From positions 1 to 64,000 of the forward strand of contig NBIV01000203.1 in the NCBI GenBank assembly GCA_003194525.1: 64,000 nucleotides of DNA. The letters are read 5' to 3'. Under the pieces are notes generated by a model. The model had not been told where the DNA came from, did not search any database, and saw nothing but the letters and a program-made list of their open reading frames with translations. Numbering within the stretch: position 1 is the stretch's first letter; every line of letters begins with the position of its first letter. Position numbers and translations under genes: made by a program. Below, one piece after another: positions 1 through 46,668 of this stretch. The stretch comes from Gracilariopsis chorda. Taxonomy: Eukaryota; Rhodophyta; Florideophyceae; Gracilariales; Gracilariaceae.

Positions 1-110
1 AGTCCACCAAGCTCCGCGTCGCTGCCTCGGTTTCTATACCGGCTGAGTCCCAAGTCTGGGTGCAGTAAATTCCGTCAACACGGTCTTCGGGTTATACAAC
101 CCCTCGCTCG

Positions 111-2842
111 TTGTACGAGAAATCCCAGCTGGCGCTGGCTAATGGAATTGTCTCCATTTCCCCGGATGTCCCTTCCCGGATATTGGTTGCCAACCTTGGC
201 AAACACCCCCAGTATCTGGTCAAACACCAAGTAATTGGGAGTGTAAACCCCCCATCCTATGGGAATGCTGCCAACAAAGATGACAGCCGCCGATGTACTC
301 GGAGTTACCACCTCTTCTGAGGAGTTCGCCCCGCCGTCCGAAGACGTCAAGTCTAAGGAGGGGGAGGAAACCGCTACTTCAGCGCCGAACATACCGAGTA
401 ACTCGGAATTGCGAACCACACCTGTTCCACAGGACAATGCTCCATCGAGCAATGACCGGATTGATCCGGAAAAAGCACTTGAAGCGCTGGAACTTCAGCC
501 ACGTGCCAGAGTCGCACCGCGACAAACTCCGTACTATGTTACGGGAATTCACCACAATGTGGGATGGCTCGCTTGGCGAGATTAATGCAACGGAACACCG
601 GATCGATTTAATCCCCGGTGCGCGACCGGTTGCACAACCCCCTTACAGGGCAGGTCCTAAAGCTCGGGAAGAGGAGCAGTCCCAGGTGGACAAGATGCTC
701 CGCGCAGGTGTGATTGAGCCCGCTCAATCACCCTGGGCATCTCCAGTTGTACTGGCTTTAAAGGCCGACGGAACCTGGAGGTTCTGTGTCGACTACCGCC
801 GGCTCAATGCCGTGACTGTTATGGACACGTACCCCATCCCTCGTATGGACGAGTGCATTGACTCCCTTGGAGACGCCACCGTATTCACGGCCCTTGATGC
901 CAATTGGGGATATTGGCAAGTACCTGTCAGACAGGAGGATCGCGACAAAACCGCATTCACCTGCCATGCAGGAACGTACCGCTTCAAGCGGATGCAATTT
1001 GGGTTAGCCAACGCCCCCGCCACCTTTCAGCGTGCAGTAGATATTCTACTCAACCGCTTTAAGTGGCGGAGTTGTCTGGTCTACCTTGATGATATCATCA
1101 TCTTCTCCAACTCGTTGGACGACCATCTCACTAACGTCCGAGACGTGCTCACTGTACTCCACGATGCGGGAATTACCCTCAAGTTAAGGAAATGCGAGTT
1201 TTTCACAGATACTGTGAAGTATCTGGGTCACATTATCCGTCCTGGAGGGTTAGCGATCGAGAAAGCTCGAGTCAAATCCCTCGTTGAGGCGAAAGAACCC
1301 CGTACTCAAACGGAACTGCGCTCCTTTCTGGGACTGGTCAACGTCTATCGACGGTTTATCCCGAACTATTCGGATACTGCAGCGCCCCTGAACGCGTTGT
1401 TGCGAAAGGGGAACCCCCCAAAACTGGAAACATTTACGCCCGAGCAATCGGAAGCTTTTAACTCCTTAAAGGAGGCTGTCACATCAGCACCAATCCTACA
1501 TCTCCCAAAACTTGGGTTGCCATACTCCGTAGATACGGACTCGAGCGACTACCAAGTCGGGTGTGCTCTTTTTCAAACCACCCCCGAGGGGGAACGGCAT
1601 CCAATAGGTTATTGGTCACGTTCGCTCAATGTTCATGAGCGGAACTACTCCGTATCGGAGAAAGAGTGCCTCGCCGTCGTATGGGCGATGACCACTCTGC
1701 GCCCCTACCTTATGGAAATTCACTTCACCGTGTACACGGATCATTCCTCATTGAGGTGGTTGATGAATATCTCCCACCCGTCGGGACGCCTCATGCGCTG
1801 GAGACTCCGCCTCGCGGAATATGACTTTCAAGTCATTTATAAAAAGGGTGCGCAGAACACCCAGGCCGACGCTTTATCGCGGTTACCCACAAGTGGGGAA
1901 GCACTCCCAACGGAGGATGATGAAGTCCCATGCTTCATGGCTACAGACCCGGATAATCCGGAACATGCCGTCGAGGCTAGGCCAGAAACCTGGGACGAGG
2001 ATGGTGATTTTGACGAACTACTCGCATCGCGAGATAAATCTGAGAACCCGTTACCGGGAAACTTTGTACCGGTATCACCGGAAGAAATGATCCGAGAACA
2101 ATTCGGCGACCGATTCTGTACGAGAATTCGTGCCCGTATCAACGGTGGTGAAGATCTCCCTTTCGGGGTAAACGACAAAGGCTACCTCGTAAGAAAGGTC
2201 GAAGCCCGCCCACAGATTGTGGTACCACATTCCCTGCAATCGCGGGTGTTACATCTATCACACTACGCCCCCATTGGAGGTCACCCAGGTGGGAGGAAAC
2301 TCTACCTAACCCTGCGAAGGGATTTCTATTGGCCCGCAATGGCGGTGGATTGCTACGCAACTGTGCGGTTTTGTAGCGAATGCGCGAAAAATCGCGTCAA
2401 ACTCCGCAAAAATGCGAAGAAGATGAAACTATTCCCCGCAAGGGCGCCGCTCGAGTTTATTGCGGTCGATACTCTCGGACCATTACTCACCACGAAACGT
2501 GGAAACAAGTTTCTACTCGTCATTACCGACCGCTTTTCTAAGCTGGTACGGACTGTCCCTCTTCGGAGGATAACCGCTCTCACGGTGGCCCAGGCTCTGG
2601 TGACGCACTGGATTTTTGTCTACGGTCCCCCTGTAGAGGTGCTCTCTGACAACGGGAAGCAGTTCGTGAGCAAGTTCTTCCAGGATGTTTGTCGCATCCT
2701 GGATGTCAAGAACTTGTTCACGACTACCTACCACCCCAGTGTAATGGGAAAGTTGAACGGTTTAACCGGACGTTACTCGCGGCGTTACGTTCCTACGTCG
2801 CTGACCACCCAACGAATTGGGATCTCTACGCTGATGCGGTAA
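111..2842 (+). pseudogene. Gypsy pol: post-protease linker, RT, RNase H, integrase N-terminal half
   Basis: Three frames must be combined. Frame one (to about 290) holds the segment that follows a retropepsin, with NPPSYG. The frame then changes near 290 and again near 490, the latter beside a run of A, before the RT linker at LREFTTMWDGSLGE. The reverse transcriptase (about 640-1250) has the motif VYLDDIIIFS at 1080-1110. RNase H (about 1480-1880) begins SVDTDSSDYQVG. The integrase has an HHCC zinc module near 2250-2390 and the first two catalytic aspartates in AVDTLGP and LSDNGKQF. The frame fails at about 2738, where a run of four C looks one base short. The product would copy element RNA into DNA and insert it. 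Confidence 0.85.
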
Positions 2843-4926
2843 CCTACGCGTACAATACGCAGGTACACCGGACTACCGGAGTTTCGCCATTCGAGTTAGT
2901 TCTATCTAGAACACCCTCGCCTGTGGCGCTGGAACCCCAAGCTACCTTGGACAATTTCCCATCTGTGGGTATCTACCGGCAGCAATGGAAGCAATGGCTT
3001 CCCAAGCTGGTCCCCGTGGCGCGGAAGTCTATGGCACGGGCCCAAGCCGCTTACAAGCGGGATTTTGACGCTCGCTTGCGAGGAAAACCGTCCCCGATTC
3101 GGGCAAATAACTACGCCTTCATCAGGAAGGAATACTACAACCCGGAACGGGAGAAGCGTCACAAACTCTCGCCTGTGGCGGATGGACCCTTCAAGGTCAT
3201 CTCTGTTAACACCGACACTGTCGTGGTAGAGATGGGGGACACGCACGAACGGATTTCCCGTGATCGTGTTGTCCTTGCCCCTCCTCCCTCGTCAGAGGTA
3301 GTCCTGGGTCCAGGCAACCCCGTTTCTACGGACTCCGCTACACCGGAACAATCCGGGAGTACTAGACCTACGGTACTACCACACCCCAGCCGGGGACTCT
3401 CAGACCTACCGACTCTGTCGGACTCACCGGCTCAGCCGGGTAATTCGGGCCCCTCAGCGCCCGCCCCTACCACATCTGCCGCACTGGCGCGCATTTATAC
3501 CCGCCAGGCGGGGAATGTTATCCCTTATCTCGCCGCTCCGTCTAAGGAGGGGGAGGAGAACACTCGTTTTCGAGGAACGATATCACCGTCGCAACGGGAA
3601 ACACACCGTAACATACGGAACACTGACCGTGGAGCACGGTGTATGTCACGCGACACTAATCCCCCGTTCCCGGGCAGTGCTGTGCAACAGGAACCAGACG
3701 CGCAGGCCCCGCAAAAGCGGCAAATACACCGTTTGTCACGGGAAAACGAGAAGCCTCACTCGAAGACCGCAGCAGCGGAAAGGCAATCGCCCGATGCCTC
3801 GAAGCCGCCGTTGGCGGAAGTCCCCGCGGAAGCGGTTCAATCAGGTCGATCAGACCCGCGCCCTGGGGAGAAGGGGCGCCCAGATACGCCGGCCTCACAG
3901 GGGAATACCCACACCCCTCTTGGGGAAAAAGGCGGCCAAGCTGCAGTCGAAGCTTTAAGCCCTGGCTCGCAAGCACCGGAAACGCCTCCCGTCGTTTACG
4001 GAATTAAAGCCCCCGCTACGGGGAATAATTTGCGCCAACCCCCGCATCGCTGCGGCGAAGAACCGAGAAACTCGGGAATAACGCGCGCCATCGCACGCTC
4101 GAAACCGGTCGTACCGGACGCTGCTCCTCATCACGGAGATGGTGCACTGCGCTCAGCGGCAATTCCCCTGAAAAGGGTGTCATCGGCACCTGCCCAGAAC
4201 CCCCCAAAGGGGATTTTTGACCAAAATACCGGTGTATCGGAGTTAGCCCCAGGCAACCCGTCAGTAGCCGGGGACACCACGGCGTCGCCGGAACGTATGG
4301 TGCAGAGCGCTCGTGCACCTGGCAGGGAGGCGGTTTGCCACCCAATCACCGTGTCGCACGGGACCCCCCAGGGGATTGTGGAAATGACGATCCCGCAGGA
4401 GCGGTCATCTTCCCGCAAACTCGCGGCTCGTGAGCTCAACCGCGAAGGCGGAGCCCAAGTCCCCAGCCAACTGGCGGTTCGCCCGGCCTACCGTGAAGAC
4501 GGGAACAACGACACCCCAATGGGGAATGACTTGCCGGGGAAAACCGTGACACCACACACTCTCTTGAGGGATATTTTCGCGCATGAGCAGCGGCCACTAG
4601 GACAGCGCACGGCAACGTCGGAGTTATCGCCGAAGACCCTGCTAAGGGACATTATACCGCACATCGGGCAGCCCTGGCAAGGGAGTACAACCACCACCCG
4701 GCACGGCCGGCAGGTCTACGAACGAGAGTTCGTAGTAGACCGACTTGTCGGACACACCTGGAACCAGGATGGTATTCTACAATACTGCGTCCGCTGGTAC
4801 GAGTACGACCCCAGTGGGGATACGTGGGAGCCAAATGAACACCTCCCACGGTCGCAGGTTCTGCGATACCACCGTCAGACGGGAACTGCAGCTCCAGCCA
4901 CGCTGGTTAATGCCCAAGTTGGGTAA
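2740..4926 (+). pseudogene. Gypsy pol: integrase C-terminal part, long linker, chromodomain
   Basis: This frame continues the integrase after the shift near 2738 and supplies the third catalytic residue in NGKVERFN. A GPY/F-type module follows (KLSPVADGPFKVI, about 3160-3270). Next comes a linker of about 460 residues rich in P, S, T, G, E and R, far longer than in typical chromoviruses. The frame ends in a chromodomain at about 4720-4890, with VDRLVGHTW, YCVRWYEYD and TWEPNEHL. Chromodomains of this class are known to steer integration to particular chromatin marks; that this one does so is inference. The frame is open to the stop at 4924-4926. Two copies of a TLLRDI motif lie just before the chromodomain. 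Confidence 0.8.
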
Positions 4927-5117
4927 CGTTGCCGCGCGAGCGGAGAGCGAAAGGAAAGGATAACAAGGCAAAGTCCGTCGAAGACGGGGAACTCAACCGA
5001 GAAGCACCGTTCTAAACGGGAAAGTTTATTCAGGGGAGCAGCTATCTCCCCACAATACTACACTACACTAACTGGCATAGCCAGGGAAAGAAGAACCAGG
5101 AAACTGGACCAGAGGTT

Positions 5118-6904
5118 TCACTCACCCCCATCGTCCGGGGCGTAACCACCAGCGAGGCGGTAGGCCAACGCGTCCGCCATGGTGGTGACATCCCCCGATA
5201 CCTCGGCAGCGCTAAGACCGGCACCCCGGAGGAAACGTGGGATGATTTCGTTTTCATTCGCCGTCACCCCGCTGGGGATTGAAGGTCCGGCACTTGCCGC
5301 CGAAGGGTCAGCAGCCGGCTCGGCCGGAGATGCCCCCTCTGGGAAAGCTTCCGCGCTAGCGCCGGTTTCCTCTACGTCCATCTCCCCGGGTTCTTCTGGT
5401 TCGTTATCGACCATTGGGTCATCCCCGCCGTATGCGCGGTAGTAGTCGTCGGAATCGACGTACCCCACCGGGTGGTCTTCCGGCACATGCCGGGGCGTAT
5501 CGCTAAGCTCGCGCGCCTCCTCGGAGGAAATTTCCCGGAACTCCCAGGGGTCGAAGTAGATAAAATCCCCCGCAAGGGCGGTGTTTCTACCGAGTCCCGG
5601 ACCACCGGTGTTACCGCTACCGCCATCCAGACGACCGCTTTGCTCCAGCGGGACCTCACTCCAGCTAACGCTGTCGATGTACCCAAGTAATTAGAGGACC
5701 TCTTCATTGTTGGCCTGGCCCCAAGGGGGATGCGAAGATCCAGGTTTCGGATCGCTGCCCGCACACGCGGTTGAAGGAACCAGAGACGATACTGGTCGTA
5801 CGCCTCGTTGAGGATATAAGCCGCACTGCGGGCCGCCCACTCCGTAACCACTACGGACCACAACCCCGACCGGGGATCCTGCATGAGCAGCGAACCGAGG
5901 TACGTAAGTACCGGCGGGAGTTCTATGTAGCACACCCGGCAGGCTTCATGGAAGCGCCACCACTCGGGGAGTGCTACATACCGACCTAGTCGGTGAGGCG
6001 GCGCAATCCGCTCTATCTCCACGTTCTGATACGGGATAAAATACCCGAATCGGGATCGCCAACGCCGCTCGTAGCGGATGAAGTTTTGGAGAAAGTTGGA
6101 CCGGTATTGCCGGGGAAGGTACCTGAACTCCGCCCGAATAATCGGTCGCTCCCAGCAAAGGGCCTCTTGCCGCGCTGCGGGGAATTTCCTCCAAGCGAGG
6201 GTCTCGAGGTGGAACAGGTTCTCGCCGTACCCAATCTCCCCGCGAGTGCGGAAGTAGCTAACGTCGAAGCCAAACTCCGGTGGGACCGGTACATCGAATG
6301 GAGCCCGGCTCTGCCGTTGATACGCCATGCGCGTCAGCGCAGTCTGTGCCGCAGTGACTGTCTCGCCCGAGTTTCTTTGGAGGTGGTGACGCGGAATCGC
6401 AATCCGGTGACGCCAATCCCACGATGTGGTGACTGCTCTGGGCAGATCCCCCGGAAGGGTGTCTGAACCATCCGCATAAGCGGTGACCAATCCCTCATTG
6501 AGGACGGCGACCGGGTGAAACCACGGGGCAAGGCGCAGGCGCGACGCGTGATTCCGATTCATTGGGTTGAGCCCCACCACGGTGTTGTAAGTTGGCCAGT
6601 TGGACACCGGAGTGGTTCCGGAGGACACCACCGAAGGTGGTAGTGCGAAGGGATGGTCGGCTGCCGCAGCCATATTCCCCGGTTGTACCGGATTTCGATC
6701 GCCCTGAGGCAGGGGAACTGACCGGAAACCGGTGGTGTATCGCCCGAGAAGTCTCGGCGGTTGGCTGTGGTTGCTGATATTGTTGTCGTCGTTCACTTTT
6801 CCCTTTTGGAGGGTGGCTGTTGTTGTCGTTTGCGTGCTTGGTGACTCTGGTGCAGAGGGATTTACCGGAGAACCGGAGACAAAGCACGCGCTTTTATCAC
6901 CCAT
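5118..6904 (-). pseudogene. Antisense frame inside the Gypsy element, unknown function
   Basis: A long frame runs opposite to pol. From 6904 it codes a Q/T/P-rich N-terminal part, then a central region of about 250 residues rich in W, R, Y and F (for example LPEWWRFHEACRVCYIELP). At about 5685, beside a GGG run, the sensible reading moves to another frame. That frame gives FIYFDPWEFREISSEEA and a strongly acidic C-terminal part ending at 5118. The combined product would be about 595 residues. I do not recognise the family. Antisense frames after pol are known in some plant Ty3/Gypsy families, and the position here is similar. A gag-like or regulatory role would be guesswork. Confidence 0.55.
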
Positions 6905-6954
6905 TTTCGTCTGGGAATCCTCCGCGTCCGCGGTCGTTTTCCCGTCTTAAGGGG

Positions 6955-7765
6955 GGTTATATGAAGTGCAACGCCCTCAGGGAGGGATTCTGGGTACTTG
7001 AACGCTTTCCTGATATTATCGGTTGTGTAGTGTGTATATGAACCACGCCCCACAATGGTGGGTATGGACACGTGGGACACGGTTTTGGGTCAATTGGCGG
7101 TTGGCCACAGTAGTGGATGTTGCCACGGAATGTGGAGTATTTTAGTTAATTTTATTTATTATTTTCACACCCATTTCTGGGAAGCTAGTACTTAGTGCGA
7201 CGGCGCACTGCCGTCGCACCAGTAAACCTTCCCCAACAAGGGACCCCAACCTGGGGAATTGGCTCTGAGCTTTACCGCCTCCGCGTGTTCTCAACTCCTC
7301 CTTGGAGGGAAGCACCGTAGTGTACGGAAGTTCACCCCCCTTGCACATCTAAAGGAGACCCATCATTGGGAGTACTAATTGTTCCAATCATATTGGTGTT
7401 TCACCCTGTATAGGGAGTCCTGTCCACCGGCATTGCCGTATCTACTCGTCGCTCTCGCGACCCACTTCGTCCTTCCTGTTTCCCCTTTTTAGGGTAGCAC
7501 CTCCCGCTATCCGCGGCCCTCGTGTGCGCATCCGCCCACACACCCCCACTTACGTGGAAACATACCTCTACTGAGGATCACACCCCGCTCACGCGGATAC
7601 CGAATCTTCGCCTTCACCTCCCTGCACGAGTCGCGACAGGTGTCCCTGGTCTTACAAACCGGCTTCGCCGTGACACCTCTGGGAGGGCTCTACCCAACTG
7701 GGTTCACCTCGTGAGAGGAAGATCCTAGACGTCTTTCAGTGTTTTTCCCCTTTGGGGCATTGCAC
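6955..7765 (+). other. Probable 3' terminal region/LTR of the Gypsy element
   Basis: This stretch has no convincing coding frame. It starts with a purine run AAGGGGGG near 6951 that could be the polypurine primer, and it stays inside the same small-hairpin pattern as the rest of the element. The pattern stops after CCCCTTTGGGG near 7748-7758. An 8-bp perfect stem, GCGACGGC/GCCGTCGC, lies at 7197-7217. The exact LTR start is not determined because the 5' LTR is not in the window. Confidence 0.45.
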
Positions 7766-9282
7766 CACAAATTTTGCGTTGAGAGCAAATTACATTTTCC
7801 TTCGTGTGAATGAATGGATGCGAGCCCTGACAGGCAAAGAAGGCGTGAGGGTGTTCATTAACTGTTTCCTGGATCTTAAGTATGGTCTAGCAGGTCGCCA
7901 GCGGTATTGCAAGGTGCAGTCTGACGTGGTGTGACTGTTTTTGAGATAGGCACGGTGAGCAATAGTGGTTTTGTTGCGGTTTGGCAGTCCCGGGTGTCGC
8001 GGAGCGTGTCGTCGGAAAGAGTTACAGGTGTAGTGGGATTGAGATGTCGAATGGCGGTGATAAATACTGGTCTATAAGGCAGTTTGGTTAGGATGTGAGT
8101 CTACATCTGGTTTGATGACATGTGTTGGATGTCGATATTTCTGATGTTCCAGTATGAGTTCAGGTATTAAAAGCGGACTGTTGGTTGCGTACGACGCGCG
8201 GAAGAAATGAATGGGACTCGCAGCTCTGCGAGAAAGGCAAGAACACGGGCAAAAGCCCTCAGAAGACTGTCTCCCGTTCCCCTTCCTCCAAGGCCACTTC
8301 GTTTTGGAAGTCGGGCTTTTATTCTGCGCTCCAGTTCCGCACAGAGCCTCTGGCAGTCTGCTGCATAGGGTGCTCTGTCCGGTACCTTCTGAAAGCCACC
8401 TACGACTACGTAAGTTGCCCGCGCATGCTCTATCAAAATCAAAGTAATTCAATTCGATATCACATTGGGTAACGCTGGTTGCCCAATTGGCGTAGACTGC
8501 ATCAACTAATGCTGTCGAATATTCTCGGTACATCAACACGGACGTCAATAAACTTTCTTCTTTTTGTGAGGGCAGTGCTAAATACAACTTTTGTTGTCTC
8601 TTGGTTGTCGATATTTTGAGTGGTGGTGTGTTTGGGCAGTTGCTACAGGTTTTGTAGTAGAGCGTAAATCCAGGTTTTTCCTGAGTAGCTTTCGTGGTGG
8701 CTAATGTATTCAGCTTTGCAGGTTTTGAGGGCGACGGACTTCTTGCCGCCTCGTTTCTTTGGCGTACTGAGCACCTGAGAAGATGTTCAGCGTAGTGCTG
8801 AGGGTTTGAGAGTCAGTGATGCTTATGGCTGGGTTGTGCGCAAGATACCTTGGTATGCATTTAAGTTGGAACCAGTGGGGTATTTTGGGGTTGTGCGTAG
8901 TAGCAGCAAGCTTTTTGATGGAAAAAAATTGGCTTTGTACTATCTGAGACATAACGAAGCTTTCTCAAAATGTTTGGTAGACCTCGACCTGGGGCGGTAA
9001 CAACAAGTTGGTGGTATCCTCTTAGGTTGTGTAGTTGTTTTCACATGGGGTCTTTTTTAGCTTTTAGATGGAAACGTTGGCTTTGTGGGGATTTCGTGAA
9101 TGCTGTGGAATTGAGAGAGGTGTATCGCGTCGTTTGAAGTGCGTGTTATTTTGAAGTTGATGCATTAGGTGAATGGTTTCATTAGCTTCAAAGTTTATTT
9201 TCTTCGAAGATAGTGGTTAAAGTTGGTGATTTATGATGTGGTGGGAGCGGCCACCAAAAATTAAGGTGATTATGAAGATGAC
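7766..9282. other. No recognised gene
   Basis: This stretch separates the Gypsy element from the Helitron array. Minus-strand frames at 8072-8587 and 8167-8442 overlap each other. The second reads as plausible helical protein (AELERRIKARLPKRSG) but resembles nothing I know. From about 8590 to 9280 the DNA is G/T-rich on the plus strand with many stops. I support no feature here. Confidence 0.5.
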
Positions 9283-9785
9283 AAGTGGATGCGCCCTACG
9301 GCCGCAGGCGGCGCTGTGCACCGTGCCAATTTGGTTGCTTGGTTTATTGAGTAGCTTTCGGAGGCTCTCCAGGCGCTTTGCTCGCTAATGCTGGCGATAG
9401 CCTCCGTAAAGCCCAGGAGGGCTACCACGCCTAGATTATAAATAGCAGTACAGTCTACAACAGCTTTGTTGTGACTGATTTGCTAATCACTGCATTGCAC
9501 TAATTGCTTAAAATGACTGCAGTGCCAACCAATGAGACTAAAGCACTACATGATGATCACTGTAACTGGCTGACACCGCAGTCGTTATGGAAGTGGTTTC
9601 TACTGAGCGGTAAGCTTTGCTGCTGCTGCTGTTGCTGAATGTTACGAATGGGAAAGAAGTGTCGCTAGATATAGAACTTTTTCATGCCCGTACAGAATCA
9701 TGCAAGGCAGTTTATTGGCGCAACGCCTCAATTCCATCTAAACCACGCCCCTAATAGTTGAATAAATTATTATAGTTGAGAGACG
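9283..9785 (-). mobile_element. Short non-autonomous Helitron copy A of tandem array
   Basis: Read on the minus strand, the copy starts near 9785 with an AT-rich head containing ACTATAATAATTTATT. The conserved GCGTTGCGCCAATAAACTG segment, a CAGCAGCAGCAG run and the GGTTGGCACTGCAGTC segment follow. It ends near 9290 in CGCCTGCGGCCGTAGGGCGC, which corresponds to the 3' end of the large Helitron at 11263-11277. There is no coding frame. It has about 500 bp and keeps the order of segments seen in the other copies. Confidence 0.5.
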
Positions 9786-10261
9786 AGAATATGCCTAAGG
9801 ATTCATATTTATCTTGGCGCAGCAAAAACGGTTTTTCATGCTGCAATAGGCCAAAACTATCCTTGATGGATGCGATGAGATCGTAGAAATACAACTTCAA
9901 ATTTTGGTTTCTTTTGACCAAAGCATTGCCTTAAAAATGCACTTCAATTCAACTGGCTAACGCTTCAAAAATGAATCCAATGCCGGTCCATCTGTTACTC
10001 AGTGGCTTCCGCTCCTTTTTTGACAGGCGCTCAGCAGCAGCGCCAGTCCACATATAGCAACAGCCGATGCGTTTTGATATTTGCTTCGGCTACTGCTGCC
10101 GCTGCTGCTGCCACTGGTGAATGCTTTGAATATAAGGGAGTGGTTGCGTTTAGAGAGGTTTCGGCAAGCATTCTAGGGGTATGCGAGGGACTTTCTTGGC
10201 GCAGTGCCTCCCTTGAATCAACATGTACCTCCTATTTCTTTTACAAATCTATAGAAGGGAG
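9786..10261 (-). mobile_element. Short non-autonomous Helitron copy B of tandem array
   Basis: This copy has the same segment order as its neighbours: a GGGAGGCACTGCGCCAAG head segment near 10200, a GCAGCAGCAGCGGCAGCAG stretch near 10090-10115, and a CACTGAGTAA segment near 9996. Its 3' end near 9790 is too decayed to place exactly. It is the least well conserved copy of the array. Confidence 0.4.
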
Positions 10262-10730
10262 AGACAAGTAGAAAAGGCCTTCGGACGTGGGCGCTGCGGG
10301 CCGCGTATTTTTGTAGCTTTTTTGATTTAGCAGCATTCGGAGGCTCTGCGAGCACTTCGCTCGCTTGCACTCACAATAGAACTCGTAGAACCCTGGGGCG
10401 CCGCCGTGCCTAGAGTATCTTGATCCGCAAAGGTTTGGGCATAGGTGCCTAAATTGACTGCAGTGCCAGCCAATGAGGGGAAAGCGCGACACGTTGCTTT
10501 CTGTAACTGGCTGGCACTGCATTCATTATGGAAGTGCCAGCCACTAAGCAGCCATCTTTGCTGCTGCTGCTGCTGAATGTTTTAAATGGTAGGGACGCAT
10601 TGCGCCAAATGGGAGTTTTGCATGCGCTTAGGGGGCATACAGAGCAGTTTATTGGCACATCGCCTCCATTCAATCAAGAAAACTATTCTCATACGCATGT
10701 AAATGCTTACGAGTGGGGTTTTGAGACAAG
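10262..10730 (-). mobile_element. Short non-autonomous Helitron copy C of tandem array
   Basis: On the minus strand it begins near 10730 and carries GGAGGCGATGTGCCAATAAA near 10670-10650, a CAGCAGCAGCAGCAGCAAAG run at 10557-10575 and paired AGTGCCAGCC segments at 10463 and 10530. It ends near 10265 at CTTTTCTACTTGTCTC, matching the end of the neighbouring copies. The paired AGTGCCAGCC/GGCTGGCACT segments can fold on themselves. Confidence 0.5.
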
Positions 10731-11245
10731 TAGAAGCGGCCTACGGCGGTGGGCGGCACTGGGCGCAGCTGAACAGGGGTAACATTGGGGGATCTGCAGG
10801 CCTCTTTTGCTCGCCAACGCTCGCAATCGGCCTGCAGGCCAATGAAGACCACTGCACCAAGGTTTAATATGGACTACAGTTGCAATTCAGCGCCCGTGCA
10901 TTGGTGAGTGGCTTGCGTTCCAGTTGTGGATGGAGAGTACTGTGAACTTTAATTGGCGGGCACTGCCAAACTGGCTGCAGTGCTAACCACTGTGCAGCGG
11001 CATGGGTAGCAGATGTGTAGTGCCAGCCACTGAGAAGGATCAACAGTCAACATAAAGCAGCAGCCAACTAGTTTTGAGCTGTGCTGCTGCTGCTGCTGAT
11101 TTTTTTAATTTTCGGGGAGGCATTGCGCCAAATTGGAAATTGCATGCGCTGAAGGGGGCGTGCAAGAGGATATTTTGGCACAACGCCTCCCGTCAATCAA
11201 CAACACCCCCCCTAATACATGAACAAATAATTATAGTAACGAGGG
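10731..11245 (-). mobile_element. Short non-autonomous Helitron copy D of tandem array
   Basis: It abuts the 3' end of the large Helitron. On the minus strand it starts with TCGTTACTATAATTATTTG at about 11243, then GGGGGGTGTTGTTGATTGAC and GGGAGGCGTTGTGCCAA, which closely match the head of the large Helitron at 17910-17790. A run of CAGCAGCAGCAGCAG lies at 11083-11097. It ends near 10735 in a degenerate GC-rich hairpin followed by CTTCTACTTGTCTCAAAAC. Confidence 0.6.
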
Positions 11246-11262
11246 TTTTGAGACAAGAGGAA

Positions 11263-11277
11263 GCGGCTTTCGGCCGC
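11263..11277 (-). other. 3'-terminal hairpin of Helitron 1
   Basis: GCGGC and GCCGC form a perfect 5-bp stem around the loop TTTCG. Helitrons are known to carry a short GC-rich hairpin just before their 3' end. Related GC-rich ends recur in the short copies at about 9290, 10270 and 10740, which supports the assignment. Confidence 0.55.
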
Positions 11278-11399
11278 AGGCAGCGCTGCGCGCCGCGGTA
11301 GAGGAGTGGTAAAAGCGGTGGCAAGAAGAAAGGGTGGAGAAAGCAAAAGCAGAAAAGAAAGTAGGTTCATTCAATGAATGAAGAACGCAAGAAATATTA

Positions 11400-13913
11400 T
11401 TACAGGTGTGGAGGGATGCAGAACTGAATGGCTTCAGGCAGCACTGGATTGGCGATGGCCACAGGTATGGGATGAATTGTGTGGGCATTCGCGGATGTAA
11501 CCTGCGGGTCATGCAGGAGCAGCACATGTTCGTTCCTTCGAACGCGCGACAATGCGACATACAACTGACTGACGCAGAAGAAATTGGATCGCACATCCAC
11601 AACCAAGCCATACAAGGTCTTTCCTTGTCCTTTGTGAACGGTAGCTGCAAACGAGAGACTAATGGGGAACCGCCTTCGAATCATGCCAATGTCTGCGAAA
11701 GAAAAGTCGAAGTCAATACGATGCAGGAGCTGTCGTTCCATCACCTGTCCGTTCTCGTCGAATGCAGCTACCTGCATCTTAAACTGATCGACACGCACAA
11801 CTATGAACAGCTTTCCATTGACCACAGCAGGATGCAGCACGTTATGAATTACCATACCTGGCACACCAATCTTCAAGTCCAAGTTATTAGGTGATACTCC
11901 AGTAGGCGCATACTGACTCGGGAACGATAGTACTGGCAAACTCAGACTCTGGGTTCTGTCTGCGATCATGTTGCACGGTTTTCGCTGACGGAAGAGTGAA
12001 GCGATCACCATGAAACAGATCTAGCGCTGCCGCATTATGTTCGTCGACCAACTGGTTTGTAGACGCAATGAGCATTTTGGTGAGATCCACATCCTCCTTG
12101 CATCATGTTGTAACCCACTTTCACAGGAATTTGTAGGCTGTTTGCATGCCACCGATAGATCTGAGTGGTAGTAGAGCGTTGTTGGATATTGTGTAGCATG
12201 CAATAGAACGTAACAGCGACGCAAATTCCAGATCATCGGCTTGGCGTACTTGTTCGGTGAGATACAGCACTTGAACCAAGCACAACGTCCACAGATCACT
12301 CTTCCACGGCAATTCGTTGAGAATATTTGTGTACACTCTTCTCAAATTTCCACTTGGCTTGGCCTCCATGCACACCTGCGGCACCGCTGGAAGCAGCTGG
12401 GAGTAGTCGCAGGATAGAACGATGGTCAAGCCCTCAAACGGAGGCGCGTTCTCCACTCCACTGCAGCGAAGATCTTTGAGCAACGCATCCATGAGTTCAA
12501 AGACCGTTCTTGAGAGCATGGACGCCTCATCCAAGACGAGCAGTTGTATGTCGCGAAGCAGTTGCGCACGTTGATATCGGGGACCGTACTTTGACAAAGT
12601 GGCTGTAGTGCTGCTTGTACTGTCCTTGTCATCAACACCCAGTCCGAGCAGGCTATGTAAATTGCGGCCACCTTCGTAAAACGATGCTGCAATGCCTTTT
12701 GTAGCAGTCATTTTGGCAAGCATTCCTTGCGACTCAGCGATGTCAAAAAGGAGGTTGTGCACGTATGTCTTTCCGGTTCCTGCGGATCTTTGCACAAAGA
12801 ACACCTTTACAGGAGTGCTCGTTCGCTCCTGCAGCGCGTGCCATTGCTGAAATTTTGCATTGACGGTGCCAATGACTTGTCTTTGGCGAGGTTTTAAGGT
12901 GGCATACCTTGACTGCAACGTTGATGCATTTCGTACCACTCGCGCGTTTCGAGTTGTTGTAGCGCGATTCGCCTCAGTCAATACTGCCTCATCCTGCTGT
13001 AGGTGTTGTGAGAAGAAGCTGTGAACGCGTAGCAGTCGGCCACCGTGCCGGTCTGAGATCTCCCCCACACGTCGATACATTTGTTGCTTTCGTTGCTGCT
13101 CATCTCCTGTATGTATGTCGCTACATAGCGCCTCCCAGTTTTCGACGGCCATGTTCTCTGGGTCTGCGCCTTGTTGGTATAGTGTGACAATCAGGCGTCG
13201 TAGCTCGGAGGGCGTGCTGTAGATCCCCACTACTTCTTGAAATGTAATACATAACTGGGATCGTCCACGAGCAGTCTGATTGCAATCGCAGCTTCACGAT
13301 AAGTTTCATACTGCTGTTCGTTGACAGTCCTTGCGACTTCATAAGAGCTCGAGCTGTGATTCATTAGCAGCAAATGCAGAGCAAATAGCTCAATGTCAGA
13401 CGGTGAAACATCTCTGATCCTTGCAACGCACTGCTCGTCTTCCGTGCGCTCTACCACGTACATGGGCGGATCTCAGTCGTCTGTGGGCACCTGAGTGCTG
13501 TCTCCTTCGTATTGGTTAAGCACGCAGGCAAGAAATGTGCGATACAATCGCCCTTTTTCAAAGTACGAAAGGTAGTCGAGGTCAGCATATGCTTCGGGCC
13601 TTGCAAAGTATCTCTCCAACGTAGACGGCTGCGATGCGGAATGGATTTGATTTGGTCCTCTGAGCAGAAACATCCGCTTTTCTTCCAAATGATTGGCCAG
13701 TCGCTCTAATTTTTGTACCATGTGAACATGTCGAAACTCGAAAATTCTCCACGCTGCGTTGACCGCCCCCAACACACGCCCCCGCATGTATGCACGAATG
13801 TCATTCTGCGCCTGCGGCTCATGTTGCGGCTCGTTCTGTGTGCCTGTCTCATTAGCACCACTCAAATTGAGCACCACATCCTGAGCTTTGGGCTGCTTAA
13901 ACGTGTACTTCAT
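11400..13913 (-). pseudogene. Helitron PIF1-type SF1 helicase domain
   Basis: The helicase is read from several frames on the minus strand. The N-terminal segment at 13913-13473 has the Helitron-typical GRVLGAVNAAWRIFEFRHVH. The segment at 13463-13230 has RIRDVSPSDIELFALHLLL. The core at 13230-12121 has Walker A GTGKT, Walker B LVLDEASML and a glutamine-containing motif LSCDYSQLLP. The C-terminal part (12090-11400) has STNQLVDEHNAA, ATVHKGQGKTL and SQLYVALSRV. Frameshifts near 13465, 13230 and 12000-12120 break it. In a working Helitron this domain unwinds DNA during rolling-circle transposition. Confidence 0.85.
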
Positions 13914-37516: not shown

Positions 37517-37789
37517 CCCCTCGTCCCCCCACTTATAATAAAGCGGAAGTTTGTCTGTCTGTGTGTCTGTGTGTCTGTGCGTCAGCAAACGCTCACTCAT
37601 TGGCTGCGAAATCGGAAAGGAGGCTGCCATGTGAAAACGTGGCATTTTAGGCCCCCCAAGAGGCATCTTGCACCGCATAATGCGACACGTTTCCATCTGG
37701 CGCTTTTTGCACGCTACAGTACCCTAGCCGTTTGACCAAAGTAGCCCATCCGTTACACTACAGTAACCGACTCATTGCAGTGCAGCTGT

Positions 37790-40071
37790 TCTTCCGGGAA
37801 GAGGATCAGCACTCCGCTGCTAATAGAGAGCGGGCAGGAACCAAGCTGACTGAGTGATTTGTGGTCAACCAGAAATACCCCGGCACACAGCATATCCTTT
37901 ATGCCCAGTTCCCGAGGTACTTTACTTGGAACAAATCAAACAATTGCTGCAAGCCGCATGCATGTCTTCGACGTCGTTCGGTGTCTCAAAGCCAGCCCAA
38001 ATCCTCCTCAGCGGCCACTGCAGCAGATCTATATGTCTTCACTGGCAGTGGTGCGCATATACTTGGGCGCATTTACACTGCCAGTCTACGAGAGGGTGAG
38101 CGGTACTACCTCCGCTTACTCCTCACCCACACAGCGGGTGCTACTTCCTTTCAGCATCTCCACACCGTGGGTGGTCAGCAATGTGGTAGCTTCAGGGAGG
38201 CCTGCCTCAAGAAGGGCCTTCTTGCCGACGACAGCGAGTGGAGACGGGCACTACGTGAGTCCTTTCGCTCGTCATTTGCTCCGCTCTTCTCATTTTTTTA
38301 CCACCATCTTGCTTTAATGCGAGCCGTCGGACCCCCGTTTTCTGTGGGAACGGCATCTATTGATGTTCCTGCAGGATATACGCGCTCGACATCTCGAAAT
38401 GATGCAGGCACTGGCCGACCACGAAAGAGCCAGCTCTTACGTTCTCTTAGAAGTGCAAAAGGCATTGCAAGAAATGGGTGGCCCACTGGCGCCTCTGTCA
38501 TCGTAAAGTCTTCCGACAACCATGCAGGACCTACCGGAAAGGCGCGCTCCAGCTCGGTCTCGGCAGAGAATCCAGTCGGAGCTGAACGAGACTGTGCAAG
38601 ATGCCCTCCCTCTCTTCAATGAGCGTCAGCATCTGGCATTCAATACCGTTGGGGGGGCCATACTTCCTGGTTTGTCCGTGGAGAGCTTGCAGGGTCTTGG
38701 TGGTCCTTCTACGGTAACACAGCCAACCACTCGCGTCTTCTTTTTGGATGCTCCAGGTAGAACCGGCAAGAACTTCCTCTCCAAGGCAATTCAGGCCACG
38801 TTACGCCTTCGTGGCAAGTCCGTCCTTACGGTAGCCACGTCTGCTGTAGCAGCTATACTGCTTGAAGACGGTCAGACGCCCACTCGTTGTTCAGGATTCC
38901 CATCCCAGCCACCGCTGAGAGCACGTGCAACATCTCAGTCAACTCCCACCTTTCCAATCGGATAAAGAACGTCGACCTCATTATCTGGGACGAGATCGTA
39001 ATGTGTCATCGCTTCTGCGCCGAAGCCGTTGAATGCACTCTCTGTGACATAACGCGCTCGCAGCTCCCCTTTAGAGGCAAGTTCGTATTGCTTTCTGCCC
39101 AATCTTGGCAGATTCTCGCCGTTGTTCGTGGGGGCTCTCGATCACTGATCGTCAACGCATTCATCAAACGATCAAGTCTATTTTATCACTTTCGCACCTT
39201 GATATTGGCTGAGAACATGCGGCTTTCTGCGCTCCCTCGAGACCCCACAGCGACAGAGAAGGCACTGCAGTTTCCAAACACGCTCTTGCAGATTGGAGAG
39301 GGCAGACTGCCAGGCACTGTCCCGCCAAAGGACCCCTTCACCCTGCCAGAGTCAGTACAATGTGTGGAGTCGTTCTGCACCATGGTCCGTAAAGTCTTTG
39401 ATGTTATCGCTCAAAGGTACATAGATGCAGATTGGCTAACGTCAACGGTGATTATAACCGCACGAAACTATCGCCTACCAGAGCTCAACAACTATGTAGG
39501 CCACATGATACCTGGAGCGTATCGCATGTACCTCAGTGCGGACAAGGTGAGTGACGCAGACGGTGCCGCACTGCAGTAACTTGTCGAGATACTCAACACT
39601 CTGACTGCCAGGTCAGCGCTGCCGGACCACCGCTTCAAACTCAAAAAGAGCTTTGTGGTTATGCTCCTTCGCAACTTGGATCCATCAAACGGCCACTCCA
39701 ATGGTGCCATCTATACCGTAGAGGACATGTGAAGCAACGTACAGTTCCTTCGGCTCGCTTCTGGAGTAAATCGTGGCAACGCACTATGCCTGCCGCGCAT
39801 GCCCTGTGGACCTGGAGAAGACAACTTTCCCGTTCCCAACTTCACTTGCACCCAGTTTCCAGTACGTGTCTGTTTTGCCATCACTACCAATAAGGCACAG
39901 GGTCAGTCGTATAGTGGTCGCATCGGACTCGATTTGCGTGATGGCTGTTTCACGCATGGCCAGCTGTACGTCGCCTTTTCTCGGACCATCAACACGTCCA
40001 ACATCGTGGCCTGTCTCCCTGCCGATAGCACCTCTACCAATAATTTAGTGTACCCCGAAGTTCTTTCGTAG
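37790..40071 (+). pseudogene. Helitron 2 helicase
   Basis: It is pieced together from three frames. The first part (37861-38622) has GERYYLRLLLTH, ACLKKGLLADDSEWRRAL. The next (38522-39579) has Walker A region DAPGRTGKNFL, where GGTGKT has become GRTGKN, and the Walker B segment LIIWDEIVMCH. The last (39799-40071) has AITTNKAQGQSYSG and THGQLYVAFSRT, ending with the stop at 40071. Frameshifts occur near 38600, 38890 and 39580-39800. The changed Walker A would prevent ATP binding even in a repaired frame. Confidence 0.8.
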
Positions 40072-40232
40072 AGAAACTTGATAGCTTTAAGTAAACTTAT
40101 TCTTTTTTCTTTTATTTTTTTGTTTTCTTCTCCCTTCTTACTCCCCAAAAATACTTGCATTCTACAAACAAATTACCCAAAACACGCTACCCACATACTC
40201 CTTTCACTCTAATGCTTCTTGTACTCCTTAAC

Positions 40233-40247
40233 GCGTGCAAAGCACGC
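40233..40247 (+). other. 3'-terminal hairpin of Helitron 2
   Basis: GCGTGC-AAA-GCACGC is a perfect 6-bp stem with a 3-nt loop. It is followed by AATGGAGCCACTT, shared with Helitron 3, after which the two copies diverge. Confidence 0.65.
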
Positions 40248-40330
40248 AATGGAGCCACTTTTCTGATATCTAACCTAAGTAAGGATTTGTGCGACAACGA
40301 CCTTCGCACCCCTTAAAAAATTAGTAAAGT

Positions 40331-40466: not shown

Positions 40467-40494
40467 CTCAGGTTTGTGACCGCTCAACCTCCGG

Positions 40495-40687
40495 CCCTAT
40501 CACTCTTTCCTGCAGGCAAGATACAGACGTCACAACTGCAGGAAAGAATGGTAGGCCGGCCCTACCACTCTTTCCTGCAGGCAAGATGCAGACATCACAA
40601 CTGCAGGAAAGTGTGGTAGGGCGGCGCTACCACTCATTCCTGCAGGCAAGATGCACACGTCACAACTGCAGGAAAGAGTGCTAGGGC
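40495..40687. repeat. Three tandem ~64-bp units, each a hairpin
   Basis: Units start near 40495, 40559 and 40625. Each runs TACCACTCTTTCCTGCAG, a 20-nt spacer GCAAGATGCAGACATCACAA, then CTGCAGGAAAGTGTGGTA; in the middle unit the arms match at 17 of 18 positions. The units differ from one another at only a few bases. Confidence 0.8.
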
Positions 40688-40990
40688 CGAAGGTACTTCT
40701 TACCCTTGTAATAAAGATAATGTTTGTGTGTGTGTGTTCCTCTATGGCCAGTCATTAGCTGGAAAATTGGCAAGGAGGCCACCAAGTGCAAACGTGTAAC
40801 TTTATGCGCTCCAAGAGGCATCCTTCACCGCATAATGCGACACGTTTCCACATGGCGCTATTTGCACGCCACAGTAGCCTAGCAATTTGACTAAAGTAGC
40901 CCACCCGTTACAATACAGTAACTGCGCCGTACCATTGCAGTGCACGTGACCGTTTCAATTACCATTTTCCAACGCTCATGTGCACCAATG

Positions 40991-44308: not shown

Positions 44309-46509
44309 TGTTCTTCCGGGAGGGCGACGAGCATTCTGCTTCTTACAGAGAGCAGGCAGGAACCAAGCTGACTGAGTAGTTTTTGGCCAACCAAAAGTAC
44401 CCCCGCGCATTTCATATCCCTTATTTCCAGTTCCCGAGGTACTTTGCTTGGAACAAATCAAACAAATGCTGGCAGTCGCGTGCGTGTCTCTGACGTCGTT
44501 CAGTATCTCGAAGCTAGCGTATCTCCTCCTCAGCCGCCGCTGCAGCGGATCTGTATGACTTCACTGGTAGCAGTACGGATGTAGTTGGGCACATTTATAC
44601 TGCCAGTCCACGAGAGGGTGAGCGATACTACCTCCCCTTACTCCTGACCCACACACAGGGTGCTAGTTCCTTTCAGCATCTCCGCACCGTGGATGGTCAG
44701 CACTGCTGTAGCTTCAGGGAGGCCTGCCTAAAAACGGGCCTTCTTGCAGATGACAGCGAGTGGAGACGCGTACTGCGTGAATCCTTTAACTCCTCATTTG
44801 TTCCGCTCTCCCATTTGTTTGCCACCATCATGGTCTACTGCCAGCCATCGGACCCACGTACTCCATCGCAGCAGCATCTATCAACGTTCCTGCGGGATAA
44901 AAGGGCTTGACATCCCGGCATGATGCAGGCACTGGCCGACGACGACAGAGCCAGCTTTATCATTCTGTTAGAAGTCCAAAAGGCACTGCAAGAAATGGGT
45001 GGCGCATTGACGTCTCTGTACACGTAAGGTCTTCTGAAACCCATAGAACACCAACAGGAACTGCGCGCTCCAGCTCCGTCTCCGCACCAAATTCAATCGT
45101 AACTGCAAGAAACTGTGCAAGCTGCCCTCCCTCTCTTCAATGAGCGTCAGCGTCTGGCGTTCAATACCTTCGTGGGGGCCATCCTTTCTGGCGTGTCCGC
45201 AGAGAGCTTGCAGGGTCTTGTTCGTTCTTCTACGGCAACGCAGCCCAACACTCGCGTCTTCTTCTTGGATGCCCTTGGAGGAACCGGGAAGGATTTCCTC
45301 TCCAAAGCAGTTGAGGGCACGCTACGGCTTCGCGGCAAGTCCGTCATTACGATATCCAAGTCTTCCCTAGCAGCCATACTGCTTGAGGGCGGTTCAATGG
45401 TCCAATCGGTGTTCGGGATTTCCATCCCAGCGACCGCTGAGAGCACGTGCAACATCACAGTCAACTCCCCCCTGGCCAATCGCATGAAGAACGTGGACCT
45501 CATTATCTGGGACGAGATCGTAATGTGTCACCACTTCTGTGTCGAAGCCGTAGACCGCACTTCCCGTGACATAACGCGCTCGCAGCTTCCGTTTGGAGGC
45601 AAATTCGTATTCTTCTGTGGTGGCTTTTGGCAGATTCCTCCCGTTGTTCGTGGTGGCTTTCGATATGTGATTGTCAATGCATGCATCAAACGCTCAAGTC
45701 TCTTCTCTCACTTTCGCACCTTGAGAATCTCTGAAAATATGCGACTCTCTGCGCTCCACCGGGATCCTACAGCGACACAGGAGATATTGAAGTTCCCAGA
45801 CACTCTCTTGAAATTTGGGAGAGACGCTTTCCAGAGACCATCCCACCACAACAACCTTCTACCTTGCCGAAGTCCGTAAAATGTGTCATTATTATAACCG
45901 CACGAAACTATAGGCTACTAGAGCTCAATGCATATGTAGGCCACATGATACCTGGAGCGTATGGCACGTACTTCAGTGCAGAAAAGGTGAGTGACAAGGA
46001 CGCTGCTGAGCTTTAGTACCCAGTCAAGATGCTCAACACTCTGACTGCCGGGTCAGCGCTGCCGGGCCACTGCCTCAAACTGAAAAAGCGCTTTGTGGTT
46101 ATGCTTTTTCGCAACTTGAATACCTCAAATGTCCACGTTAATGCTGCTATATATACCGTGGAAGACATGCAATGCAACTTACTGCTCTTTTGACTCGCTG
46201 CTAAAGTAAATAGTGGCAATACACTATCCCGCCGCGCATGCCATAGGGACCTGGAAATGAAGAATTTCTAGTTCCCGACTTCACTAGCACCAAGTTCTCT
46301 GTACGTGTCTTTTTTCCCATCTTTACTAATAAGGCTCAGGGGCAGTCTTATAGTGGTTACATTGGACTAGTATTTTTGATGGCTGTTTCACGCATGGCCA
46401 GTTATATGTTGCGTTTTCTGGGACCACTAACCCGTCCAATATCGTGGCGTGTCTCCCTGCCTGTACCGTATCTACTAATAATATAGTGTACCCCGAAGTT
46501 CTTTCGTAG
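44309..46509 (+). pseudogene. Helitron 3 helicase
   Basis: The sequence runs parallel to the Helitron 2 helicase. It has ACLKTGLLADDSEWRRVL near 44720, Walker A DALGGTGKDFL near 45265 (GGTGKT with D for T), LIIWDEIVMCHHFC near 45495 and FCGGFWQIPPVVRGG near 45615. The C-terminal part has FTNKAQGQSYSG near 46325 and ends at the stop 46507-46509. Frameshifts and stops break it at about 44500, 45000, 45880 and after 46010. About 40 codons present in Helitron 2 near 39370-39450 are missing near 45880. Confidence 0.8.
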
Positions 46510-46641
46510 AGAAACTACATAGGTTGACTTAAACGTCTAAGTTTTTTCTTTTACCGTTTTCTTTTCTTCTTCTTTCTTACTCCCTTAAAATACTTGCATT
46601 CTACAAAACACGCCACCCAAATGCTTCTTTCGCTTCTTAAC

Positions 46642-46656
46642 GCCTGCAAAGCATGC
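46642..46656 (+). other. 3'-terminal hairpin of Helitron 3
   Basis: GCCTGC-AAA-GCATGC forms a stem with one mismatch and is followed by AATGGAGCCACTTG. It corresponds to the perfect hairpin of Helitron 2 at 40233-40247. Confidence 0.6.
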
Positions 46657-46668
46657 AATGGAGCCACT

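What the first reader, a model, noticed from the sequence alone, without database searches (positions are those of the whole stretch)
1..7765. A retrotransposon carpeted with tiny perfect hairpins in coding and non-coding parts
Stems of 4-8 bp with loops of about 3-5 nt recur every 25-35 nt along the whole Gypsy element, with a strong preference for C in the left arm and G in the right. The pattern crosses RT, RNase H, integrase, the linker, the antisense frame and the 3' terminal region, and stops at the element border. Codon choice seems to have been adapted to keep the stems. This suggests selection or a mutational process at the level of RNA or single-stranded DNA, such as packaging, protein binding, or resistance to silencing. 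I know of no described Gypsy family with this property.
Basis: partly seen in the sequence, partly recalled or inferred. Interest (0 to 1): 0.88.

Follow-up and report, generated by a model that had tools for sequence, protein, structure and literature searches.

The report
Seaweed retrotransposon tiled with tiny hairpins
A jumping gene of a red seaweed carries a short, exactly paired hairpin every few dozen letters along all of the part that could be read, and related families show some of these hairpins re-paired with new letters, which points to a structural or copying constraint that we do not know from other retrotransposons.

Summary
In window 1-7768, the 3' part of a Ty3/Gypsy chromovirus in a genome most likely of the red alga Gracilariopsis chorda, perfect short stems are 2.4-2.8 times as dense as in shuffles that keep protein, codons and dinucleotides (92 vs 32, 78 vs 32, 54 vs 23). 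The excess covers RT, RNase H, integrase, linker, a conserved antisense gene and the LTR, and stops at the element border. Geometry is tight: CC-N7..9-GG, span 11-13 nt, neighbours preferentially about 20 nt apart. Pairing is strictly Watson-Crick: G-T pairs are as rare as other mismatches. At least four related families carry the array; hairpins at homologous places have altered arms, 14 of 28 with a true two-sided replacement. Thirty Copia loci lack it; of two distant Gypsy loci one lacks it and one has a weak excess without the CC motif. Best reading: a selected array of short hairpins on the single-stranded genome, probably a protein-binding or packaging lattice (inferred). Main rival: a copying process that templates one arm from the other. 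Close copies mostly show plain decay, so recent selection on stems is only weakly supported.

The parts
1..7768 (+). 3' part of a Ty3/Gypsy chromovirus carrying the hairpin array; left end is the start of contig C203, right end the element border
   Evidence: (homology of copy L069 to the window ends at 7769)
761..1237 (+). reverse transcriptase, 37.5 stems/kb in 761-1240 vs 11.4 expected
   Evidence: Pfam RVT_1 1.9e-34; density
1433..1822 (+). RNase H domains, 37.5 stems/kb in 1431-1830 vs 11.0
   Evidence: Pfam RT_RNaseH_2 and RT_RNaseH
2222..2737 (+). integrase zinc-binding and core domains; in this copy the integrase runs on in another frame (2650-4926)
   Evidence: Pfam Integrase_H2C2, rve; ORFs
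3300..4728 (+). linker between integrase and chromodomain, 32.9 stems/kb vs 12.3
4729..4854 (+). chromodomain
   Evidence: Pfam Chromo 7.9e-9
5118..6946 (-). antisense gene (aORF) of unknown function; in this copy split over two frames (5372-6946 and 5118-5690)
   Evidence: 60 of the 70 long matches listed (a capped list) show no stop; stems 54 vs 22.6 in 5375-6946
6949..6956 (+). polypurine tract AAGGGGGG (inferred)
   Evidence: sequence
6957..7768 (+). 3' LTR (limits inferred), 40.6 stems/kb vs 11.1
   Evidence: in L069 the homologous stretch is followed directly by gag; density
7195..7219 (+). one long hairpin (10-bp arms, 5-nt loop) in the LTR, identical in copy L069
979..991 (+). example of a re-paired hairpin: CCGCTtcaAGCGG; family A has CCGATtcaATCGG, family B TCGCTttaAGCGA at the same codons
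1648..1660 (+). example of a re-paired hairpin: CTCCGtatCGGAG; A CTCTGtgtCAGAG, B CTCGGtgtCCGAG
1806..1818 (+). example of a re-paired hairpin: TCCGCctcGCGGA; B TCCGActcTCGGA

Best explanation
A clade of red-algal Ty3/Gypsy chromoviruses has evolved all of its genome that was read here into a quasi-regular array of short hairpins (CC-clamped, 4-5 strictly Watson-Crick pairs, loop of 3-4, neighbours about 20 nt apart). Shown: the excess, its geometry, its independence of coding content, its presence in at least four families, and altered arms, half of them with two-sided replacements, at homologous sites. Inferred: the array is kept by selection because the hairpins form on the single-stranded genome (genomic RNA and/or the cDNA made from it) and are bound by a repeating protein subunit, most likely the element's Gag/nucleocapsid, each subunit sitting on one hairpin and one linker, as a dispersed packaging or coating signal.
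For: Excess survives codon- and dinucleotide-preserving shuffles in three frames. Density is similar in catalytic domains, linker, antisense gene and LTR (26-46/kb) and hairpins start in all three codon phases (21, 21 and 19 of 61 in 284-2839), so it is not a coding artefact. Fixed geometry: the CC..GG excess peaks at span 12-13, all four inner WC pair types exceed the product of marginals, and the pair just outside CC/GG is less often WC than expected. Neighbour preference: 153 pairs at 16-24 nt vs 101-130 under hard-core nulls, deficit at 26-35 nt. Hairpin centres coincide between families (within 2 columns): pol W-A 17 of 61, A-B 19 of 72, against 1-6 at shifts of 6-15 columns; antisense gene 14 of 40, 18 of 40, 17 of 32 against 0-3. 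Same-centre hairpins with altered arms: 5, 4, 10 (pol) and 1, 5, 3 (aORF) against null means 0.35-0.63, above the null maximum in 5 of 6 comparisons; 14 of these 28 hold a two-sided WC replacement, the rest differ in arm length or register. In the antisense gene, stem positions of one family diverge less than other sites between the other two (0.27-0.32 vs 0.30-0.41). A rather than T flanks hairpins on the genomic strand (A/A 89, T/T 41 of 485), also in family D, whose fetched part holds the gene of the other strand; this fits a single strand rather than duplex DNA.
Against: G-T pairs are as rare as other mismatches (12 vs 30.7, 13 vs 34.9), unlike most selected RNA stems. RNA folding z is only about -1 (W, A), -0.3 to -0.5 (D), much the same on both strands. 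No loop motif; loops are AT-rich and nearly A/T-symmetric. Flank bias is significant in only 4 of 8 sets. Close copies: no compensated pair inside aligned element sequence of six D copies, and stem, loop and outside diverge alike when stems are taken from a third copy (0.030, 0.030, 0.032). Among 30 W rows one shared two-sided change (T-A to C-G at about 4675/4680 in 5 copies) kept three pairs but lost the outermost one; the other two-sided cases involve the diverged copy L030 or a stem found in a single copy. Among 29 W copies lineage variants avoid stems relative to loops (10/908 vs 12/371, p=0.015) but not relative to all other sites (p=0.14), and singletons go the other way (111/908 vs 29/371). 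In pol, stem positions of one family are not more conserved between the other two, and centre coincidence of W with B is weak (8 of 61; background 1-8). No order beyond nearest-neighbour spacing (gap-permutation null). No binding protein is identified.
Confidence: 0.48

Rival explanations
1. Mutational origin: during reverse transcription the growing strand folds back on a short GC clamp 11-13 nt away, copies its own arm and returns to the template, so imperfect short inverted repeats are steadily converted to perfect ones (quasipalindrome-type template switching).
For: Strict Watson-Crick pairing with G-T treated as a mismatch is what templated copying gives; all regions are affected alike; the CC..GG polarity is the same on both strands; weak RNA folding gain. 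Template-switch mutation at imperfect inverted repeats is described for E. coli (PMC7202029, title and abstract start in the listing).
Against: CC..GG itself is in excess at spans 12-13 (143 vs 64.2, 131 vs 61.6), although as a prerequisite it should not be; stems have an upper size limit and a preferred spacing; flanks are strand-asymmetric. Clusters of 4 or more changes in 16 nt between close copies occur (25 places in W, 8 in D, 7 in E, 0 in A and B, but also 8 in Copia); most are seen in one or a few pairs of copies. The largest shared one (7 differences in 16 nt, one allele a perfect hairpin) alters both arms, loop and flank, not one arm only; another, in L020 and L033, swaps one perfect 4-bp hairpin for another in a shifted register. 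Ty3 RT has its two active sites ~13 bp apart (PMC5371799, passage), which does not match 20 nt.
Confidence: 0.27
2. Shield against the host: hairpins about 20 nt apart leave no open stretch long enough for small-RNA targeting, and no long dsRNA, protecting the element RNA from silencing or decay.
For: Spacing close to small-RNA length and few stems longer than 6 bp.
Against: Thirty of 30 Copia loci in the same genome lack the array, as does the distant Gypsy locus L073; no small-RNA data; G-T pairs would serve as well but are absent.
Confidence: 0.1
3. Duplex DNA sites with dyad symmetry (for example everted CGG triplets) bound by a DNA-binding protein.
For: CCG..CGG is common among the stems.
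Against: Variable but complementary inner bases with all WC types are not expected of a fixed protein site; flanks are strand-asymmetric.
Confidence: 0.05
4. Artefact of codon usage, GC content or protein repeats.
For: The element is GC-richer (52-60% in 2-kb windows) than much of the window.
Against: Codon- and dinucleotide-preserving shuffles, LTR and antisense frame all show the excess; the rest of the window and Copia do not.
Confidence: 0.02

Closest known systems
Ty3/Gypsy chromoviruses (LTR retrotransposons with a C-terminal chromodomain)
   Same: RT, RNase H, integrase, chromodomain order by Pfam; gag with a CCHC knuckle (recognised by eye) upstream in copy L069
   Different: Array of short perfect hairpins over all parts read; antisense gene between pol and LTR. 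Antisense ORFs in some plant Gypsy lineages are recalled, not checked here.
Dispersed RNA packaging signals of small +ssRNA viruses (MS2, STNV, STMV)
   Same: Many short stem-loops spread through coding RNA, varied in sequence, alike in structure; STMV RNA was modelled with 30 stem-loops (PMC3662417, passages)
   Different: Here 231 non-overlapping stems in 7.8 kb (about a third expected by chance), strict Watson-Crick with a CC/GG clamp, in a retroelement; no protein binding shown
Genome-scale ordered RNA structure (GORS) of RNA viruses
   Same: Structure spread over the whole genome (recalled; one search gave listings only)
   Different: GORS, as recalled, is a folding-energy property; here the folding gain is small and the unit is an 11-13-nt hairpin
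Quasipalindrome correction by template switching
   Same: Works on imperfect inverted repeats through a template switch (PMC7202029, abstract start)
   Different: Known (recalled) as hotspots, not as a tiling of a whole element with a fixed clamp and spacing

Membership tests
Ty3/Gypsy chromovirus | RT-RNase H upstream of integrase | tested here: met
   Pfam order RVT_1, RT_RNaseH, Integrase_H2C2, rve
Ty3/Gypsy chromovirus | chromodomain C-terminal to integrase | tested here: met
   PF00385 at 4729-4854 above its cut-off (35.8 vs 25.1 bits)
Ty3/Gypsy chromovirus | paired LTRs and target-site duplication | tested here: inconclusive
   The window holds only the right end; in L069 an LTR-like stretch lies between an element tail and gag; no duplication was looked for
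Dispersed packaging-signal array | many stem-loops across coding RNA beyond codon-preserving controls | tested here: met
Dispersed packaging-signal array | stems conserved by pairing rather than sequence | tested here: met
   between families (14 of 28 two-sided); close copies give little or no sign of it
Dispersed packaging-signal array | a common recognition motif in the loop | tested here: not met
   no dominant loop; the common part is the CC/GG clamp
Dispersed packaging-signal array | binding by the structural protein and effect on packaging | not testable with these tools
   needs experiment
RNA structure under selection (general) | G-U pairs accepted in stems | tested here: not met
   GT 12 vs 30.7, TG 13 vs 34.9
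Template-switch (quasipalindrome) mutation product | single-step events copying one arm from the other | tested here: inconclusive
   clusters of changes exist, but in the largest shared one both arms, loop and flank differ

The most novel reading that the evidence does not exclude
A retrotransposon clade has turned its whole genome into a hairpin array with a preferred repeat of about 20 nt: a physical code written over genes on both strands and over the LTR, read by a protein that counts hairpins, with wobble pairs forbidden because the fold must hold in both the RNA and the complementary DNA strand.
Probability: 0.3. Interest if true: 0.95.

Novelty: new variant of a known kind. Interest (0 to 1): 0.85.

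Why it matters
If selected, it would be a retroelement whose genome carries a structural code along every part read here, making retrotransposon packaging and the cost of overlapping codes directly testable. If mutational, it would show a reverse transcriptase writing inverted repeats into its own genes at a rate that shapes their evolution. Either outcome is unexpected, and the sequence statistics are strong.

Tried and rejected
Rejected: coding/GC artefact; a habit of the whole genome (rest of the window; Copia); a strong gain in RNA folding energy (z only about -1); fixed duplex-DNA site. Named host genes were not tested: the HSP70 control did not complete. Weak or negative: vacant places in double gaps are not clearly filled by 3-bp stems (87 gaps, 5 at the midpoint against 0-7 elsewhere); viral-contig scans with the pol protein and with P0002 found no relative, so nothing outside this genome was tested at DNA level; no order beyond nearest neighbours. 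Distant Gypsy locus L074 has a modest excess (24 vs 13.7, z 2.8) without the CC motif, so a faint form outside the clade is not excluded. Families A, B and L088 are known here from pol and D and E from the antisense gene; D or E may be the other end of A, B or L088, so only four families are counted. Literature: ten searches listed no paper on such a retroelement; one search listed 10 of 192 papers; only open-access PMC is held; listings were seen, and two papers by passages only.

Rows dropped: L030 (92.7% identical) from the variant counts and from the haplotypes; L078 (99.5% like L077); L039, L040, L049, L050 from the Copia alignment. One search tested 11 Gypsy loci (L001-L009, L020, L030; L009 is the window itself) of the 38 then held.
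Full report
WHAT IT IS. The window begins at the first base of contig C203 of a 91.3-Mb, 1081-contig genome. A protein named as Gracilariopsis chorda BWQ96_03215 matches this genome at 100% identity over residues 1-491 of 617, so the host is most likely that red alga (Rhodophyta). Window 1-7768 is the right-hand part of a Ty3/Gypsy element: RT, RNase H, integrase and chromodomain by Pfam, an antisense gene at 5118-6946, a polypurine tract and an LTR (the last two inferred from sequence and from copy L069). In this copy the integrase and the antisense gene are each split over two frames.

THE OBSERVATION. Perfect stems with loops of 3-6 are 2.3-2.6 times (arm 4 or more) and 3.4-4.3 times (arm 5 or more) as frequent as in dinucleotide shuffles in the element's two 4-kb blocks and near 1 in most of the rest (the block 8001-12000 gives 1.3x and 2.1x). 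The excess sits in a narrow class: arm 4/loop 4 (70 vs 18.5), arm 5/loop 3 (43 vs 5.1). Thirty of 38 200-nt windows inside, 16 of 281 outside, pass p<=0.05.

ANATOMY OF THE UNIT. Stems begin with CC 12.4 times more often than in shuffles, with GG no more often (149 vs 12.0; 12 vs 12.8). CC..GG pairs peak at span 12-13 (143 vs 64.2, 131 vs 61.6), while GG..CC shows no such peak (74 vs 62 at both). Inside, every Watson-Crick pair type exceeds the product of its column frequencies; just outside, A-T and T-A are below it (3 vs 9.3, 7 vs 12.8 at span 12). Given that the other inner pairs are Watson-Crick, A-T is 96 vs 24.6, T-A 99 vs 28.5, G-C 187 vs 55.7, C-G 131 vs 71.3, while G-T is 12 vs 30.7 and T-G 13 vs 34.9, no better than most other mismatches (0.17-0.55 of expectation, six sequences: W, gag of L069, A, B, D, E). 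Loops are AT-rich without a motif. A rather than T flanks the stems on the genomic strand (A/A 89, T/T 41), significant in 4 of 8 sequence sets: W 1-4926, W LTR, B pol and D; the other four (W antisense gene, gag, A pol, E) are not significant.

SPACING. 231 non-overlapping stems, mean spacing 33.6 nt. Pair distances favour 16-24 nt (153 against 101-130 in hard-core nulls, z 3.0-6.7) and avoid 26-35 nt (z -3.0 to -4.4). A local period of 20.5-21 nt has z 4.5 against random placement, but permuting the observed gaps gives the same: there is a preferred neighbour distance, not a long-range lattice.

SPREAD. The excess is found in 11 of 11 tested loci of W, A and B (one of them is the window itself), in six of six loci of D, in ten of ten antisense-gene sequences of W, D and E (35-68 vs 16-24), and in L088, a further relative (22 vs 9.4). 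By RT there are at least four families (W, A, B, L088; 78-82% alike); D and E are known only from the antisense gene and may belong to these. Family B prefers TC and CC starts. Thirty of 30 Copia loci show none (34-53 vs 38-51). Two distant Gypsy loci (about 35% RT identity): L073 none (9 vs 13.5), L074 weak and without the CC motif (24 vs 13.7; C-start 4 vs 2.9). The array is thus mainly a trait of one Gypsy clade.

CHANGE OVER TIME. Between W, A and B (63-66% DNA identity in pol) most stems are not kept column by column: 8 of 92 W stems remain perfect in A and 7 in B. But hairpin centres coincide above shifted alignments (W-A 17 of 61, A-B 19 of 72; W-B only 8 of 61, barely above its background; in the antisense gene 14 of 40, 18 of 40 and 17 of 32; side peaks near 21 columns). 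Same-centre hairpins with altered arms number 5, 4, 10 in pol and 1, 5, 3 in the antisense gene against null means of 0.35-0.63; W-L075 (1) is within its null. Fourteen of these 28 hold a two-sided Watson-Crick replacement; the others differ in arm length or register. Examples are CCGCTtcaAGCGG / CCGATtcaATCGG / TCGCTttaAGCGA and CTCCGtatCGGAG / CTCTGtgtCAGAG / CTCGGtgtCCGAG. Against this, copies of 90-99% identity mostly show plain decay: in D no compensated pair within the element, and equal divergence of stem, loop and outside. In W, variants shared by three or more copies are rarer in stems than in loops (10/908 vs 12/371, p=0.015), not rarer than elsewhere (p=0.14), and singletons show the reverse. 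Five W copies share a T-A to C-G change at about 4675/4680 that keeps three pairs but loses the outermost. One block of seven linked differences in 16 nt (about 3888-3903) replaces a broken stem by CCAGCgccGCTGG or CCAGCaccGCTGG in 12 of 30 rows; since both arms, loop and flank differ, it looks more like a patch from another lineage than like one-arm copying (inference).

MECHANISM. Shown: a force acts on Watson-Crick pairing in a unit of fixed size, clamp and preferred spacing, over genes on both strands and the LTR. Inferred: the unit is recognised on the single-stranded genome. The strand-asymmetric flanks, size cap, clamp and spacing favour a binding lattice; the element's Gag, whose knuckle CHLCYAHGHTSPQCIC is seen in L069, is the obvious candidate, the antisense protein another. 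The missing wobble pairs are the main difficulty: they would follow if the fold must hold in cDNA as well as RNA, or if one arm is copied from the other. I give selection for a binding array 0.48 and templated copying 0.27.

NOVELTY. Ten library searches listed no description of such an element (see Tried and rejected); the library holds open-access papers only. The element is an ordinary chromovirus by domain order; the array is what is new. The nearest analogy is the dispersed packaging-signal model of small RNA viruses (PMC3662417, passages).

Noticed in passing
window 5118-6946 (-); L075-L087: An antisense gene of about 610 aa between chromodomain and LTR is conserved across families (54% identity upward to P0001), without stop in 60 of the 70 long matches listed, and has no Pfam match above cut-off; P0002 shows a relative from another source.
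   Followed up: partly
window 7195-7219: A 10-bp perfect hairpin in the LTR, unchanged in copy L069, much longer than the array units; possibly a regulatory stem.
   Followed up: no
L069 1-4500: Two element copies appear to share one LTR: tail of one copy, LTR, then gag and protease of the next.
   Followed up: partly
L069 2599-3348: Only about 250 aa of open frame follow the LTR before the protease frame, with a CCHC knuckle but no capsid recognised by eye; gag may be short or deleted in this copy.
   Followed up: no
window 37787-39365 and 44309-45886; 39451-40263 and 45891-46672: Large direct repeats, 79-81% identical.
   Followed up: no
window 40487-40694: Short direct and inverted repeats of about 65 to 210 bp.
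   Followed up: no
window 11400-12020 (-): ORF that by eye resembles the end of a Pif1-type helicase (ALSRVR); not checked by a search.
   Followed up: no
window about 3888-3903 (copies L011, L012): Two alleles with seven linked differences in 16 nt, one a perfect hairpin, in copies otherwise about 1% different.
   Followed up: partly
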